Assembly (NCBI RefSeq): GCF_011758645.1
Contig: NZ_JAAMOZ010000001.1
Location: forward strand, 1,922,001-1,986,000
Direction of reading: 5' to 3'
DNA from: Brooklawnia cerclae
GTDB lineage: Bacteria > Actinomycetota > Actinomycetes > Propionibacteriales > Propionibacteriaceae
Length of the DNA stretch: 64,000 nucleotides
Below are positions 3,388 to 16,334 of the stretch, piece after piece. The notes below the pieces were generated by a model. It saw nothing but the letters and a program-made list of their open reading frames with translations. It did no database searches and was not told where the DNA came from. Made by a program: the position numbers and the translations under genes. Numbering within the stretch: position 1 is the stretch's first letter; every line of letters starts with the position of its first letter.

Positions 3388-3456
3388 TCAGCACACGGGA
3401 CAACAGGACACAGCGACGCGCGGAGCGGTCACCATCGGGGTCCTGTTCGTCACCAT
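3388..3456 (-). CDS. Cys-codon-rich leader peptide of the sulfur operon
   Basis: A 22-codon reading frame ends in SCCPVC immediately before TGA, so three of its last five codons are Cys. The upstream ATG (3456) lies eight bases after a -10 element, which would make it leaderless. A second in-frame ATG at 3435 has AGGA upstream. The frame lies in the 5' region of the operon encoding the thioredoxin-like protein, DUF4395, CysM, Mec and CysO. Cys-rich leader ORFs that attenuate sulfur genes are known in mycobacteria; the assignment here rests on the peptide, the promoter and the downstream genes. Confidence 0.68.
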   Translation of the reverse strand: MVTNRTPMVTAPRVAVSCCPVC

Positions 3457-11658: not shown

Positions 11659-11682
11659 ACCCCCCGGGGGTGTGGCTACAGT
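11659..11682 (+). promoter_or_regulatory. Promoter and C/G-tract palindrome of the flavin operon leader
   Basis: A TACAGT -10 element (11677-11682) lies seven bases before ATG 11690, an arrangement typical of leaderless transcripts. Just upstream is a CCCCCGGGGG palindrome (11661-11670), and the octamer ACCCCCCG occurs twice, 15 bases apart (11644 and 11659). Such C/G tracts resemble CsoR-family operators, but the assignment is speculative. Confidence 0.5.
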
Positions 11683-11689
11683 GTCCCGC

Positions 11690-11806
11690 ATGATCAACGC
11701 AGGAACGCTCTCCGGTCGTCTCGGCCGCACCCTGCGCTCCGTGGTGCGGGGCGGCATGCCCCCGGCGCTCTGTACGAGCCGCCGGGTCGCTTGTTCGTGT
11801 TGTTGA
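11690..11806 (+). CDS. Cys-codon-rich leader peptide of the flavin electron-transfer operon
   Basis: A 38-codon frame beginning at a probable transcription start ends RRVACSCC directly before TGA. Four of its last eleven to thirteen codons are Cys (LC, AC, SCC). An internal ATG at 11756 would make a 16-residue version. It is followed by 272 bases without a gene and then the propeller lipoprotein. The resemblance of the ending to the leader at 3388-3456 (RVAVSCCPVC) supports a shared cysteine-sensing role. Confidence 0.66.
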   Translation: MINAGTLSGRLGRTLRSVVRGGMPPALCTSRRVACSCC

Positions 11807-12078
11807 CCCGGCACCATCCCGGCTGTCGCCCTCGGCGTCACGCGGTCTCCCGCGTCCTCGCCCACGTCACCCGATGCGACACCAGCCTCTCGAACTGACA
11901 CACGTCCCTCCGAACGCCGATCGGCGCGTCCCCTCACGGAGACCCTGACCGCGGTCGCCCCCGCCCGGGGAACCGCACGCCGATCCGCCGTGCCAGTCCG
12001 AACAGCCCGCGTGGACTCCATGAGCCCGCGGCGCGTCCCTACCCCATCCATCCCCTCCGACAAGGATCCCCACCACCC

Positions 12079-13377
12079 ATGTCCACACCATCGATTCCCG
12101 CTCGCCTCCGGCATCGGCACGCTCTCGCCCCGGCGAGCATCACGATCGCCGCCGTCATGCTGGTCGCCGGCTGCTCGTCCGGCACGACACCCACGGACGA
12201 GTCCTCCGCAGAACTCGGCGACGCGTACATCGTCAACACCGGCGGCGTCGACGCCGGCCTCCCGGACGCCGGTCCGTCCCTGTCCGTCGTCGATCGTTCG
12301 ACCGGCCAGGTGAGCCAGACGATCGAACTGCCCAACGACGGCGACCATGCCGAGGTCGGCCACTTCGTCAACATCTCCGCCGACGGCACCCAGCTGTGGC
12401 TGGGCACCCGCTCCGACGAGACCGAGGCCGGTCACGGCACCGTGCGTGCCTACGACCTCGCCGCACTCCACGAGACCGGCGTGATCAGCTACGACGACTC
12501 GGACGCGATCCAGCACAGCTTCGACGTCGGCAGCGGCGTGCAGAACGTGAGCACGCCGGACGGGCGCTTCTTGTTCACATCGTCCGAACAAGGGACCAAG
12601 GGCATCAACATCTTCGACACCGAGACCGGTGAGTTCATCGGCAACATCCCCAACGACAACACCTCGCCGCACTCGGGCGCCGTGTCGCCTGACGGGAAGA
12701 CCTACTACACCACCACGGCAGAGAAGCACCACGTCGTCGGCTACGACATCAGCGGCCTGCCCGACACGGTGCCGTCCGATGCCGATCGGGTGCTCGATCT
12801 CGACATCGGCTACGGCTCCCTGCACGCCTTCGACATCGATCCCACCGGGAACTACCTGTTCGTGGGCAACTCCGACTGGCAGATCCCCGAGGGTGCCACC
12901 CCGCGCTCCGGTGTGAACATCATCGACATCTCGACCGGCACCCCGACCATCGTCGCGACGGTTCCCGGGCGCCCGCACAACTTCACCATCTCCGCCGACG
13001 GCACATACCTGGCCTCCACGGAACTGAAGGCACAGGCGAAGGCGAACGACTGCGACGCGGGAGCCGCCGACCTCGGCAACCGACTGCAGTTCATCGACGT
13101 CTCGACGCTCCAGGACGCCGACCCCGACTACTCCACGATCACCGAGGTCTACTCGTACGACACCCCGGGATTCGGCGGCAGCCACGCCATCTGGGACGAG
13201 GCGACCGGCTGGCTGTACTACACGGTGATCGACAACGAGTCCGGACAGGGGTATCTCCACGTGCTCGACACCTCCACACTCGACGACGCGAGTCCGTCGG
13301 TGAGCACGGTGCTGGACGCCCAGGAGATCGGTTGGAACCCCCACGGCCTCGTGATCCCCGGGCGGAACGGCCGATGA
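12079..13377 (+). CDS. Beta-propeller (YVTN-like) lipoprotein
   Basis: The 432-residue product has a lipoprotein signal ending in MLVAGC near residue 31, then about seven repeat blades. Several blades carry an inward-type His motif: GHFVNISADG, QHSFDVG, SPHSGAVSPDG, LHAFDIDPTG, RPHNFTISADG, SHAIWDEATG and NPHGLVIPG. This ring of His is seen in YVTN/AztD-like propellers and could bind a metal or cofactor. It overlaps the next gene by four bases and heads an operon for an FMN-binding lipoprotein, ApbE and an NqrB/RnfD-type reductase, so it may be the terminal redox or substrate-binding component. The ribosome site is weak (AAGGA about 14 bases upstream). Confidence 0.8.
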   Translation: MSTPSIPARLRHRHALAPASITIAAVMLVAGCSSGTTPTDESSAELGDAYIVNTGGVDAGLPDAGPSLSVVDRSTGQVSQTIELPNDGDHAEVGHFVNISADGTQLWLGTRSDETEAGHGTVRAYDLAALHETGVISYDDSDAIQHSFDVGSGVQNVSTPDGRFLFTSSEQGTKGINIFDTETGEFIGNIPNDNTSPHSGAVSPDGKTYYTTTAEKHHVVGYDISGLPDTVPSDADRVLDLDIGYGSLHAFDIDPTGNYLFVGNSDWQIPEGATPRSGVNIIDISTGTPTIVATVPGRPHNFTISADGTYLASTELKAQAKANDCDAGAADLGNRLQFIDVSTLQDADPDYSTITEVYSYDTPGFGGSHAIWDEATGWLYYTVIDNESGQGYLHVLDTSTLDDASPSVSTVLDAQEIGWNPHGLVIPGRNGR

Positions 13378-13862
13378 GTCAGTCCCGAGGCGGCGGTCAT
13401 GCCGGTTCGCGCCGAGCCACCCTGGTCGGCGCGGGCGGCATGGCCGCGGTCGGGGTCGTCTGGTCCCTGGCCGGTTGCTCGGCCAGCCACTCGCCCGACT
13501 CAACGGTTCCGGCATCCTCGTCGCACGCGAACGGGGCCTCGGCAACGGCCGGGTCGAGCGCCGAGGCCACCGCCGGCGGCGACGTCTACCGGGTGAGCGG
13601 TGAGGACAACCCTCCCGGCGGGCCCGAGCCGTTCGAGGTGGAGGTCACGCTGGACGAGAACGTGATCACCGCGGTGACGTTCACACCGCAGGCCACCAAC
13701 TCCGAGTCGAACCGTTTCCAGCGCATCTTCGCCAAGCAGATCAGCGACCAGGTGCTCGGCAAGACGCTGGACGAGGCCCGCGCCGTCCGGATCTCGGGCG
13801 CCTCGCTGACTTCCGAGGGCTTCGCGGAGGCCCTCGCACAGATCGAGCAGCAGGCCGGGTGA
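13374..13862 (+). CDS. FMN-binding domain lipoprotein (ApbE flavinylation target)
   Basis: A 162-residue exported protein. The N-terminus has a twin-arginine-like GSRRATLVG and a lipobox SLAGC, so it may be a Tat-exported lipoprotein. The C-terminal FMN-binding domain ends with RISGASLTSEGFAEAL, containing the SGAxxT motif whose Thr takes covalent FMN from ApbE in NqrC/RnfG-type proteins. The next gene is apbE itself, overlapping by four bases. It should shuttle electrons from the membrane reductase encoded downstream to an acceptor outside the cytoplasm. Confidence 0.83.
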   Translation: MSQSRGGGHAGSRRATLVGAGGMAAVGVVWSLAGCSASHSPDSTVPASSSHANGASATAGSSAEATAGGDVYRVSGEDNPPGGPEPFEVEVTLDENVITAVTFTPQATNSESNRFQRIFAKQISDQVLGKTLDEARAVRISGASLTSEGFAEALAQIEQQAG

Positions 13863-14764
13863 GCCGGCCGCGAGTGATGACCGAGTCGGAGTTCCATGCC
13901 ACCGGCACTCGCTGGCGCATCGACACCGCGCGTCCACTGGATGCATGGGTCGCCGACGCCGTACGCGATCGCATCGACTCCTATGAGGCCGCCTTCTCGC
14001 GGTTCCGGCCCGATTCGACGGTGGCGGCCGCGGCCAGGCAGGCGGGGACGTTCATGTTCCCGCCCGAGGCCGATCCGCTGTTCGACGTCTACCGGCGTCT
14101 CGACGAACTCACGGGTGGGGCGGTCAACCCCCTCGTGGGGGTCAGCCTCGCCCACCTCGGGTACGGGGCGGTGCCGACCCTTCGTCCCCGACCGGGCGCG
14201 AGACCGGCACCGGTCTTCGGCGAGGTATGCCACTGGGACGGCCGTTGTCTGCACACACGGGAGCCGGTGAACCTCGATTTCGGCGCGGCCGGCAAGGGAC
14301 AGATAGCCGACCTCGTCCTGCAGATGCTGCGGGACGAGAGCACCGTCGGGCACGGACCGGTGGTCGTCGATGCCGGTGGCGACATCGTCCGTGACGCCGG
14401 CGCACGCCGCGACGCCGAACGGGTGGGGCTGGAGAGCCCGTTCGAGCCGGGACGGGTGATCGGGGTGTTCACGCTCGGCAGCGGTGCGGTCTGCGGATCC
14501 GGTGTCGGACGGCGCGCCTGGGCCGGACGCCATCACGTGCTGGACGCGCGAACCGGGGAACCGGTCACCGGGATCGTCGCCACCTGGGCCATGGCGTCCA
14601 CCGCTCTGATGGCGGACGCCGCAGCCACCGCGCTGTTCTTCGCCGACCTCGACGAGGTCTGTTCGGCCTTCATGGCTGTGGGCGTCCGGGTCAGGGCCGA
14701 CGGGTCCGTCGAGTGGTTGGACGATCCACGGTTGGAGATCTTCACAGAACATCAGGAGAGCTGA
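13859..14764 (+). CDS. apbE: FAD:protein FMN transferase
   Basis: The 301-residue ApbE protein attaches FMN to a Thr of exported flavoproteins. It shows the family N-terminus MGTRW-like ATGTRWRID, the GGAVNPLVG segment, the LDFGAAGKGQIAD motif at about residues 139-151, DAGGDIV, and the metal-binding C-terminal stretch ATWAMASTALMADAAATALF. GTG 13859 overlaps the stop of the FMN-binding gene (GTGA), so the enzyme and its substrate are coupled. No signal peptide is obvious, unlike many ApbE lipoproteins, so its compartment is uncertain. Confidence 0.9.
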   Translation: MSRPRVMTESEFHATGTRWRIDTARPLDAWVADAVRDRIDSYEAAFSRFRPDSTVAAAARQAGTFMFPPEADPLFDVYRRLDELTGGAVNPLVGVSLAHLGYGAVPTLRPRPGARPAPVFGEVCHWDGRCLHTREPVNLDFGAAGKGQIADLVLQMLRDESTVGHGPVVVDAGGDIVRDAGARRDAERVGLESPFEPGRVIGVFTLGSGAVCGSGVGRRAWAGRHHVLDARTGEPVTGIVATWAMASTALMADAAATALFFADLDEVCSAFMAVGVRVRADGSVEWLDDPRLEIFTEHQES

Positions 14765-14765
14765 C

Positions 14766-16334
14766 ATGAATGCCTCATCCGCCCAGGTCGTTGCGATACC
14801 AGGCCACTCCCCCGGCCCGCTCGCACGTCTCGTCGCCCGGAGCGGCCGCTGGTCGATGTACCGGTGGACCGCGGCCGGGCTCGCGCTGGTCGAGGTGTGC
14901 GCGCTGGGCGCGGCCGCCGCCGGGCAGTTGCTCGCTGGGCCGATCGACCTGCTCATGAGCCTGGCCGTCGCGGTGGCAGTCAGCATCGTGGCCAACAGGG
15001 CGTGCGCCGCGCTGTGGCATGCGCCCGTGCGGGACGAGTCCGCCCTCGTCACCGGGCTGATCGTCCACCTGGTCGCCTGGCCGGGAACCGATCGGGTCTC
15101 GTTACTGGCCGTCGTGGTGACCGCGGGGATCGCCGCGGTGTCGAAGTACGCGCTGGTGGTGAGGGGACGCCGCCTCGTCAACCCGGCGGCCGTCGGGCTC
15201 GCTGTGAGCGGGCTCGTCGGCCTGGGATCGGGTAGCTGGTGGGTCGCCACCCCCGTGCTGTTGCCGATGGTCGCAGTCACGGGCCTGCTCGTGCTCCAGC
15301 GCTCCGCGACCTGGCCCGCCGCTGCCGGTGCCTTCATCACGGGCCTCGTGGGCCTCACCGTATGGCTGGCCGGCTCGGGCGCGAGCGTCCCGCAGGCCGC
15401 CGCCTCGGCCCTCGGGTCGTATCCGGTCGTCTTCTGGGCGGCGTTCATGGTGACCGATCCCCAACTGCTGCCCGCACGACGCCTGCACCAGGTGGTCGCG
15501 GGGGTGGCGTCCGGGATCGCGCTGGCGATTCCCTTCAGCCTGTCCATCGGCGCCCTCACCGTGTCGTCCTCCCCTGCGACGGCTGTGCTGGTGGGCAACC
15601 TCGTCGCTCTCGGGCTGCGTGCGCGGCGCAGCCGGGCCGTGGACGCCCGGGTCGGTGCGACGCGGTCATTGGGTGGCGACATCGTCGAGGTCGACCTGAT
15701 CACCTCGCGTCCCATCAGCATCGAAGCCGGCCAGTACGTGGAGCTGACGGCACCGTCCGGGCCGTGGACAGCACGCGGGAACCGTCGCGCGTTCACTCCC
15801 ACCAGCACCACAGGCACCCCGGGGACGGGATTGCAGATCATATTCCGCGCCGGCGAGCCGCTCAGTTCGTTCAAGCGCAGCCTGCTGACCGACGGAGCCC
15901 CCCTGCGCCTGGAAGGTGTTCGCGGAGATCTGACGCTGCCCGGCGACCCGGGCATTCCCCTCGTGCTTCTCGCCGGCGGGGTCGGGATCACCCCGTTCAT
16001 CGCATTCGCCAACCAGCTTCGCGCCCGCGGCGAGGTACGGGACGTGGTCCTGATCCACTGCGTCCGGCATGTCGACGAGATCATCCATCCGGAGGTGCTC
16101 TCCGGCTTCCGTGTGATCGTGGTCAGCCCCGACACGGACGGGAAGCTGCCCGAGGACTGGCTTCGGCTCACAGGGTCCGTCCCCGACGCGGAGGCCCTGA
16201 AACGCCTGTGTCCCGATATCGGGAAACGGCTCGCCTACGTCGCGGGCTCGCCCCGATCGGTGGCTCGGTACCGACGGGCGCTACGTGCCGCCGGGGTGCT
16301 CCGGGTACGCAGCGAGGCACTGGTCGGCATCTGA
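14766..16334 (+). CDS. NqrB/RnfD-like membrane domain fused to a ferredoxin-NADP reductase-like domain
   Basis: A 522-residue fusion. Residues 30-290 form a polytopic NqrB/RnfD-type domain (e.g. LVNPAAVGLAVSGLVG, FWAAFMVTDPQLLPARR). Residues 295-520 are a flavin reductase module with the FAD motif NRRAFTPTS, the pyridine nucleotide motif LLAGGVGITPFIAFANQL, and the final AYVAGSPRSV. It should take electrons from cytosolic NAD(P)H and pass them across the membrane to the FMN-binding lipoprotein. Such fusions are found in extracytosolic flavinylation systems described from genome surveys. It begins two bases after apbE and is the last gene of the operon. Confidence 0.85.
   Translation: MNASSAQVVAIPGHSPGPLARLVARSGRWSMYRWTAAGLALVEVCALGAAAAGQLLAGPIDLLMSLAVAVAVSIVANRACAALWHAPVRDESALVTGLIVHLVAWPGTDRVSLLAVVVTAGIAAVSKYALVVRGRRLVNPAAVGLAVSGLVGLGSGSWWVATPVLLPMVAVTGLLVLQRSATWPAAAGAFITGLVGLTVWLAGSGASVPQAAASALGSYPVVFWAAFMVTDPQLLPARRLHQVVAGVASGIALAIPFSLSIGALTVSSSPATAVLVGNLVALGLRARRSRAVDARVGATRSLGGDIVEVDLITSRPISIEAGQYVELTAPSGPWTARGNRRAFTPTSTTGTPGTGLQIIFRAGEPLSSFKRSLLTDGAPLRLEGVRGDLTLPGDPGIPLVLLAGGVGITPFIAFANQLRARGEVRDVVLIHCVRHVDEIIHPEVLSGFRVIVVSPDTDGKLPEDWLRLTGSVPDAEALKRLCPDIGKRLAYVAGSPRSVARYRRALRAAGVLRVRSEALVGI

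What the first reader, a model, noticed from the sequence alone, without database searches (positions are those of the whole stretch)
11690..11806. Third Cys leader upstream of a flavin electron-transfer operon
The frame begins seven bases after TACAGT and ends RRVACSCC. Cysteine control of an extracytoplasmic flavin pathway is unexpected and hints that the operon's product reduces a sulfur compound such as cystine or another disulfide or sulfoxide outside the cell.
Basis: inference. Interest (0 to 1): 0.8.

Follow-up and report, generated by a model that had tools for sequence, protein, structure and literature searches.

The report
Cysteine-sensing leader before flavin electron operon
A tiny gene ending in several cysteine codons sits where a cysteine-shortage switch would sit, just before four genes that look able to push electrons from inside the cell to an unusual histidine-ringed, probably metal-binding protein outside it, which hints at an unknown way of gathering sulfur.

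Summary
ATG 11690 opens a 38-codon frame, 7 bases after TACAGT, ending RRVACSCC. Leaderless frames with 3+ Cys in the last six codons: 2 in the window, 0 in 150 random 64-kb sequences. The other one (3388-3456, minus) precedes thioredoxin-DUF4395-cysM-like-mec-like genes. Such leaders also precede sir and a YeiH-type gene here, and sir in 4 of 5 sir-bearing congeners. I found two in the window, not three.

The operon (12079-16334) is a published type of NAD(P)H-to-FMN module (FMN_bind, ApbE, NqrB/RnfD-like-FNR) headed by a lipoprotein propeller with seven regularly spaced histidines and one mature Cys. In distant relatives that Cys is an in-frame UGA followed by a SECIS-like hairpin, in genomes with SelB: probably selenocysteine.

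Best reading: cysteine-starvation attenuation of an extracytoplasmic metal-thiolate redox system. 'Reduces a sulfur compound' is plausible, unproven. Six module relatives lack leader and propeller, so the combination is known from one genome.

The parts
11677..11682 (+). -10 element TACAGT; predicted start of transcription at or next to the ATG (leaderless)
   Evidence: sequence; same TANNNT-7 nt-ATG spacing as the sir leaders of own genome and four congeners
11690..11806 (+). poly-Cys leader uORF, 38 codons, C-terminal ACSCC; all four Cys codons TGT
11807..12078 (+). 272-nt stretch without a convincing frame, C 48.5%, G 24.3%; candidate Rho-loading region; no intrinsic terminator on the + strand by the scan
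12062..12066 (+). AAGGA, candidate Shine-Dalgarno of the first gene
   Evidence: sequence
12079..13377 (+). lipoprotein beta-propeller (432 aa), His 95/146/198/249/300/369/422 at blade spacing, single mature Cys 325
13051..13053 (+). codon of Cys325, aligned with in-frame UGA in Thermoleophilia/Gaiellales relatives
13374..13862 (+). FMN_bind lipoprotein; overlaps propeller stop (ATGA)
   Evidence: PF04205 25.3 bits, cut-off 22; lipobox read by eye
13794..13805 (+). SGAS, flavinylation-type [S/T]GA[S/T] motif
   Evidence: sequence; motif as stated in PMC8238504
13859..14764 (+). ApbE, FAD:protein FMN transferase; overlaps FMN_bind stop (GTGA)
   Evidence: PF02424 115.3 bits, cut-off 25.6
14766..16334 (+). 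NqrB/RnfD-like membrane domain fused to FAD/NAD(P)H reductase domain
   Evidence: PF00175 24.6 bits, cut-off 22; PF03116 hit in 2 of 7 aligned orthologs, not in the window protein; reductase half matches ferredoxin/P450 reductases and NqrF FAD domain

Best explanation
A leaderless transcript begins at ATG 11690. Ribosomes translate the 38-codon leader; when charged cysteinyl-tRNA is scarce they stall on the terminal TGT codons, and the downstream operon is read; when cysteine is plentiful they finish and leave a long C-rich, G-poor RNA, on which Rho could end transcription before 12079. The operon makes an NAD(P)H-fed membrane reductase (NqrB/RnfD-like-FNR) that passes electrons to a lipid-anchored FMN protein (loaded by ApbE), and from there to a lipid-anchored propeller whose hub carries seven histidines and one Cys, probably a copper-thiolate site. 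Most likely job: redox conversion, probably reduction, of a sulfur compound outside the membrane to feed cysteine synthesis. Shown: frame, promoter motif, chance control, leader architecture and codon bias shared with cysteine genes of this genome, protein families, conservation of the His series and of Cys/UGA. Inferred: stalling, Rho, electron direction, metal, substrate.
For: Chance control 2 vs 0 in 150. Same-type leaders at a cysM-like operon, sir and a YeiH-type gene in this genome and at sir in G001, G004, G006, G007. TGT in 13 of 15 Cys codons of the four leaders vs 7 of 35 in 17 genes, Fisher p 1.6e-5; this leader 4 of 4, p 0.004. C-over-G excess of the 272-nt gap reached by 0.26% of 9,996 windows. 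Module genes and published NQR/RNF-like type. His spacing 51, 52, 51, 51, 69, 53 and one mature Cys; Cys/UGA position invariant in 5 of 5, six His in 5 of 5, the seventh in 4 of 5.
Against: No expression data. Leader-propeller-module combination seen in one genome: propeller in 0 of 390 others of an order sample (E 1e-10) and 0 of 197 others of the family (E 1e-15), and the two genomes with the closest propellers show no module in the DNA held. Six module orthologs have no such leader or propeller. The TGT bias is not seen in three congeners' sir leaders (6 of 12 TGT). The C excess after the YeiH leader is weaker (reached by 3.6% of windows), so the Rho idea is not shown to be general. Gap of 272 nt against about 21-113 nt after sir leaders. 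Metal is inferred; the model has mean pLDDT 69.5. Substrate and direction rest on the leader and on published proposals.
Confidence: 0.58

Rival explanations
1. The leader works as said, but the propeller oxidises a sulfur compound (as thiocyanate dehydrogenase or methanethiol oxidase do) and the flavin module carries electrons inward or serves another enzyme.
For: Thiocyanate dehydrogenase chains are among the top 50 structural matches (ranks 10, 33, 38, 48); it is a copper propeller splitting thiocyanate (PMC9456337 passages). SELENBP1 is a copper-dependent methanethiol oxidase (PMC10362175, title and start of abstract in a listing; that it is a propeller is recalled). One UGA relative has a weak methanethiol oxidase hit (16.4 bits of 650).
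Against: Propeller fold matches are unspecific (1,645 chains at E <= 0.001). No methanethiol oxidase hit for the window protein at E <= 1. The published module type is proposed to send electrons outwards.
Confidence: 0.18
2. The operon is a reductase of NosZ type (propeller plus flavinylated partner), and cysteine control reflects the need for sulfide or thiol in its metal centre, or thiol stress, not sulfur supply.
For: NosZ holds CuZ [4Cu:2S] by seven hub histidines in a seven-bladed propeller (PMC11573801 passages); nitrous oxide respiration depends on an ApbE-flavinylated domain (PMC8238504); the best NCBIfam hit is L-NosZ (31.9 bits), 61.8 and 41.9 in two relatives.
Against: All far below the L-NosZ cut-off of 700; no CuA domain reported; none of the window ORFs scanned with Pfam was a nos accessory gene (only part of the window was scanned).
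Confidence: 0.1
3. The module is a ferric reductase for iron uptake or general electron export; cysteine control links it to Fe-S or redox balance.
For: PMC8238504 notes a VIT1 iron transporter in six NQR/RNF-like clusters and suggests iron assimilation for some; weak PF08030 ferric-reductase NAD-binding hits in 7 of 7 orthologs (best E 0.00072).
Against: No iron gene recognised in the operon; a cysteine leader is not the expected iron control (recalled).
Confidence: 0.08
4. The small frame is a chance or decayed leader and the operon has its own promoter in the gap.
For: The gap is long; no relative with the same arrangement confirms it.
Against: Chance control, tail shared with the cysM-like leader (RRVACSCC, PRVAVSCC), TGT bias; no TANNNT hexamer between 11681 and 12100, though other promoter types were not tested.
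Confidence: 0.06

Closest known systems
Polycysteine leaderless short ORFs of mycobacteria (Canestrari et al. 2020; not held; seen only as a cited title and one sentence in PMC13236596; details recalled)
   Same: leaderless start, Cys codons in a short frame, several operons in one genome
   Different: downstream operon is not a known cysteine gene; 272-nt gap; predicted exposure of the Shine-Dalgarno does not change with ribosome position (0.41 throughout), so the translation attenuation named in PMC13236596 is not supported here
NQR/RNF-like flavinylation gene clusters (PMC8238504, PMC11334425; passages read)
   Same: ApbE + FMN_bind + NqrB/RnfD-like domain fused to NAD-binding domain; primarily Actinobacteria and candidate phyla radiation
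   Different: here with a His-series/Cys propeller as first gene and a cysteine leader; 'propeller' does not occur in the main text of either paper
NosZ CuZ propeller and L-NosZ (NF052460)
   Same: propeller with seven histidines; NosZ linked to a flavinylated partner
   Different: His spacing suggests one per blade, where NosZ takes two from blade II and none from blade IV; conserved Cys/UGA; no CuA domain; L-NosZ score 31.9 against cut-off 700
Thiocyanate dehydrogenase
   Same: extracytoplasmic copper propeller, sulfur substrate
   Different: only weak, local sequence similarity (profile E about 0.005 or weaker for chains so named)

Membership tests
poly-Cys leaderless attenuator uORF | start codon at the transcript's 5' end | tested here: inconclusive
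   -10 motif seven bases upstream fits; the transcript start was not measured
poly-Cys leaderless attenuator uORF | clustered Cys codons at the end of a short frame, beyond chance | tested here: met
poly-Cys leaderless attenuator uORF | stalled ribosome unmasks the Shine-Dalgarno | tested here: inconclusive
   predicted exposure of AAGGA 0.41 for all ribosome positions (0.59-0.64 for 12064-12070); no switch seen, but folding 400 nt is a weak test
poly-Cys leaderless attenuator uORF | expression rises on cysteine limitation | not testable with these tools
   needs RNA or reporter data
NQR/RNF-like flavinylation cluster | ApbE and extracytosolic FMN_bind protein with [S/T]GA[S/T] | tested here: met
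   SGAS at 13794-13805
NQR/RNF-like flavinylation cluster | N-terminal NqrB/RnfD domain (PF03116) | tested here: inconclusive
   no hit for the window protein at E <= 5; 2 of 7 aligned orthologs hit, best E 0.0046; no NqrB/RnfD chain among the 50 structure matches listed
NQR/RNF-like flavinylation cluster | C-terminal NAD-binding domain PF00175 | tested here: met
   24.6 bits, cut-off 22; fold match
NosZ / L-NosZ | score above the family cut-off | tested here: not met
   31.9 of 700 bits; relatives 61.8 and 41.9
NosZ / L-NosZ | ring of seven hub histidines | tested here: inconclusive
   seven regularly spaced His in sequence; hub position not measured in coordinates
methanethiol oxidase / SELENBP1 | family profile match | tested here: not met
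   no NF052453 hit for the window protein at E <= 1; one relative 16.4 of 650 bits
selenoprotein (for the relatives in L103 and L106) | in-frame UGA aligned with Cys and SelB in the genome | tested here: met
selenoprotein (for the relatives in L103 and L106) | SECIS hairpin after the UGA | tested here: inconclusive
   hairpin with GGUCU at the top in all three and one C-G to U-A change, but the two L103 folds are not better than shuffles (z -1.4 and 0.1)
thiocyanate dehydrogenase | trinuclear copper site and thiocyanate turnover | not testable with these tools
   only weak similarity

The most novel reading that the evidence does not exclude
A new class of extracytoplasmic redox metalloenzyme: a seven-bladed propeller with a ring of seven His plus one Cys or selenocysteine, fed by NAD(P)H through a covalent-flavin relay and switched on by cysteine starvation, used to liberate sulfur from an extracellular compound. 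It would be a flavin electron-export chain under ribosome-sensed cysteine control, and a copper-Cys or copper-Sec propeller enzyme; my paper listings showed neither.
Probability: 0.3. Interest if true: 0.85.

Novelty: new variant of a known kind. Interest (0 to 1): 0.6.

Why it matters
The leader gives an orphan electron-export operon a physiological label, cysteine shortage, that can be tested directly. For NQR/RNF-like clusters the passages I read suggest a role only for a few (iron, where VIT1 is present); here the regulation narrows the search to sulfur chemistry. The first gene belongs to a small family in which a Cys or selenocysteine beside seven conserved histidines points to an undescribed metal-thiolate or metal-selenolate site.

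Tried and rejected
Exact pattern with TGC codons in the own genome found nothing, because the leader uses TGT. CxCC-stop pattern: 28 places, of which 8 have a true stop; besides the finding's own, 7, none with a leaderless start (one search had read minus-strand loci unturned and was redone). NCBIfam on the leader peptide: no family. Rfam over the window at gathering scores: nothing. Leader RNA fold: z -1.0, not unusual. Translation attenuation by Shine-Dalgarno masking: no support. Intrinsic terminator: none on the + strand by the scan. Foreign origin by GC: operon 69.7% against a mean of 67.6, sd 1.3, of equal windows, like its upstream flank at 69.9%; no clear signal. Plasmids: 58 records, all under 60% identity and none covering 80%, none for a UGA relative at 1e-10; viral contigs: none. 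Burkholderiales propellers (L115-L127 in part) were dropped: similarity covers about 65 residues and, by eye on two of them, the His series differs. Not examined: four further genomes at 60-70 bits (own gene 479); the 57-aa frame before the YeiH-type gene. (transporter family, own genome) was meant to find sulfur transporters and was little used. In one search the sir gene was read out of frame; its gene count (11 of 53) is replaced (7 of 35, 17 genes picked by convenience). One search's looser rule listed further frames that I take for chance, and in G006/G007 a second, divergent leader-like frame.

Full report
Observation. The frame is exactly where described: ATG 11690, TGA ending 11806, 38 codons, TACAGT at 11677-11682 and seven bases between. 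GTGs at 11672, 11681, 11741 and 11744 and an ATG at 11756 share the stop, but only 11690 has the TANNNT spacing. In 150 random 64-kb sequences with the window's dinucleotide make-up no frame met the rule (TANNNT, 6-8 nt, ATG/GTG, 8-50 codons, 3 or more Cys in the last six), against 2 in the window; for 4 or more Cys anywhere it is 1 against a mean of 0.07; for any such frame 8 against 9.4.

The second of these, 3388-3456 on the minus strand (MVTNRTPMVTAPRVAVSCCPVC, TAGTCT eight bases before), leads to thioredoxin (3189-2743), DUF4395 (2756-2280), a PALP enzyme read here as cysM (2213-1215) and a JAB protein read as mec (1218-694), then a frame that looks like ThiF by eye. The names cysM and mec are my reading of family and order. 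The tails PRVAVSCC and RRVACSCC are alike. A third leader was not found by this rule; looser scans gave only doubtful frames.

Leaders of the same build elsewhere. In the own genome the sulfite/nitrite reductase gene (PF01077), here called sir, has MAAQGCDILFCSRAACPRACRAS, and the divergent YeiH-type gene (PF03601) has MSSADVPTRDLTCRVAPGTRCCCRSAMLRV. In 101 kb of own sequence the rule with only 2 or more Cys finds these two, the finding and 3388-3456, and nothing else (L097 was chosen for sir). Of seven congeners, five have PF01077; four of these have a poly-Cys leader with exactly seven bases between TANNNT and ATG (G001, G004, G006, G007; the last two share one sequence); in G003 I found none. 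In the four leaders of the own genome 13 of 15 Cys codons are TGT, against 7 of 35 in 17 genes picked by convenience (Fisher p 1.6e-5; this leader 4 of 4, p 0.004). In three congeners' sir leaders it is 6 of 12, so the bias is not general.

How it may switch. Between leader and first gene lie 272 nt with 48.5% C and 24.3% G; 0.26% of 9,996 window values (both strands) reach that excess, but 3.6% reach that of the stretch after the YeiH leader. No intrinsic terminator was found on the + strand, the leader RNA folds no better than shuffles (z -1.0), and the predicted exposure of AAGGA (12062-12066) stays at 0.41 wherever the ribosome is placed. Rho-type transcription attenuation therefore fits better than masking of the ribosome site, but this is composition, not proof. 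After the sir leaders the gap is about 21 nt (own) and 51-113 nt (congeners, by the first possible starts). PMC13236596 (passages) says that cysteine genes of M. smegmatis are under translation attenuation and describes a transcription attenuator at ilvB1.

The operon. Four genes overlap or nearly touch (ATGA, GTGA, one base). FMN_bind, ApbE and a protein with a C-terminal NAD-binding domain were found by Pfam. The membrane half gave no PF03116 hit by itself at E <= 5, but 2 of 7 aligned orthologs did (best E 0.0046). The model's reductase half matches P450/ferredoxin reductases and the NqrF FAD domain; no NqrB or RnfD chain is among the 50 matches listed (mean pLDDT 75.2, pTM 0.58). This is the gene set of the NQR/RNF-like clusters of PMC8238504, proposed there to carry electrons from NAD(P)H to an extracytosolic FMN domain, with iron assimilation suggested for some; PMC11334425 adds a model of the pair (passages only).

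The propeller. The first gene is a 432-aa lipoprotein propeller (mean pLDDT 69.5, pTM 0.75; structure matches are all kinds of propellers). Seven His (95, 146, 198, 249, 300, 369, 422) out of 15 recur at about one blade's spacing, at or next to the start of strands, and after the lipobox Cys32 there is a single Cys, 325. In five family members six of these His are in 5 of 5 and H146 in 4 of 5; position 325 is Cys in two and UGA in three. The three UGA genes (two tandem in L103, one in L106) each have a hairpin after the UGA with GGUCU near its top, with a C-G to U-A change in the stem between L103 and L106; against shuffles the two L103 folds are not significant (z -1.4 and 0.1), and the L106 fold differs in detail. 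SelB (PF09107) is present in both of those genomes and not found in the own genome or G006. That the loop resembles known bacterial SECIS loops is recalled. I take the relatives as selenoproteins and the window protein as their Cys form.

What the propeller may do. NosZ binds its copper cluster with seven hub histidines in the same fold, two from one blade and none from another (PMC11573801 passages), and thiocyanate dehydrogenase has three coppers in the tunnel of such a propeller (PMC9456337 passages). The window protein is not a member of the profiled L-NosZ family (31.9 of 700 bits). A metal-thiolate centre fed by FMN is the simplest reading; copper, substrate and direction are inferred.

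Distribution. The propeller is in 0 of 390 other genomes of an order sample, 1 of 395 others of a phylum sample (G420) and 2 of 399 of G420's class (G420, G837) at E 1e-10, and in 0 of 197 others of the family at E 1e-15; only the best few candidates per genome were scored. A class sample of 394 gave, besides the own genome, four at 60-70 bits, not examined. The named scan returned 23 loci, of which two (L106 Gaiellales, L107 Thermoleophilia) are close and hold the same DNA as G837 and G420. None of L104-L128 shows the flavin module by tblastn at E 1e-3, though several contigs end near the gene. Among 56 relatives the long reductase protein has long matches in six (G034, G052, G006, G043, G049, G007), each with FMN_bind and ApbE matches beside it (partial for ApbE in G007) and no propeller match in the 12-14 kb read. 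No leaderless frame with 2 or more Cys was found there; G006 and G007 have one doubtful TTG frame 830-870 bases before the FMN_bind match.

Verdict. By my judgement the leader is very probably a cysteine sensor (0.85), outward electron flow is likely (0.75), a metal site in the propeller 0.65, a sulfur substrate 0.45. No paper listing that I saw showed a cysteine leader on a flavin operon, and none a selenocysteine propeller of this kind; I read titles and abstract starts there, the listings are capped, and the library lacks most subscription papers and Canestrari 2020 itself.

Noticed in passing
L103 9383-7818 and 11552-9975 (minus); L106 9743-11023: Three propeller genes in two Thermoleophilia/Gaiellales genomes carry an in-frame UGA aligned with Cys325 and a SECIS-like hairpin; both genomes have SelB. 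Possibly an undescribed selenoprotein family with seven conserved His.
   Followed up: partly
window 3388-3456 (minus): Second poly-Cys leaderless leader, before thioredoxin, DUF4395, cysM-like and JAB (mec-like) genes.
   Followed up: yes
L097 7698-7790 (+) and 7507-7578 (minus): Back-to-back poly-Cys leaders between the sulfite reductase gene and a YeiH-type (PF03601) gene; a 57-aa membrane-like frame (from 7962) lies between the YeiH leader and the gene.
   Followed up: partly
L132 611-688 (minus), L133 2775-2852 (+): G006 and G007 also have a divergent leader-like frame, MYSSATQIPALGGWLRMCCPCLKCR, back to back with the sir leader; its downstream gene was not identified.
   Followed up: no
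leaders of the own genome: Leader Cys codons are TGT in 13 of 15, while 17 genes use TGC in 28 of 35; perhaps the rarer codon makes the stall more sensitive. Not seen in congeners (6 of 12).
   Followed up: partly
G005 and G002 (same genus): No PF01077 match in two congeners, so this kind of sulfite reductase may be absent there.
   Followed up: no
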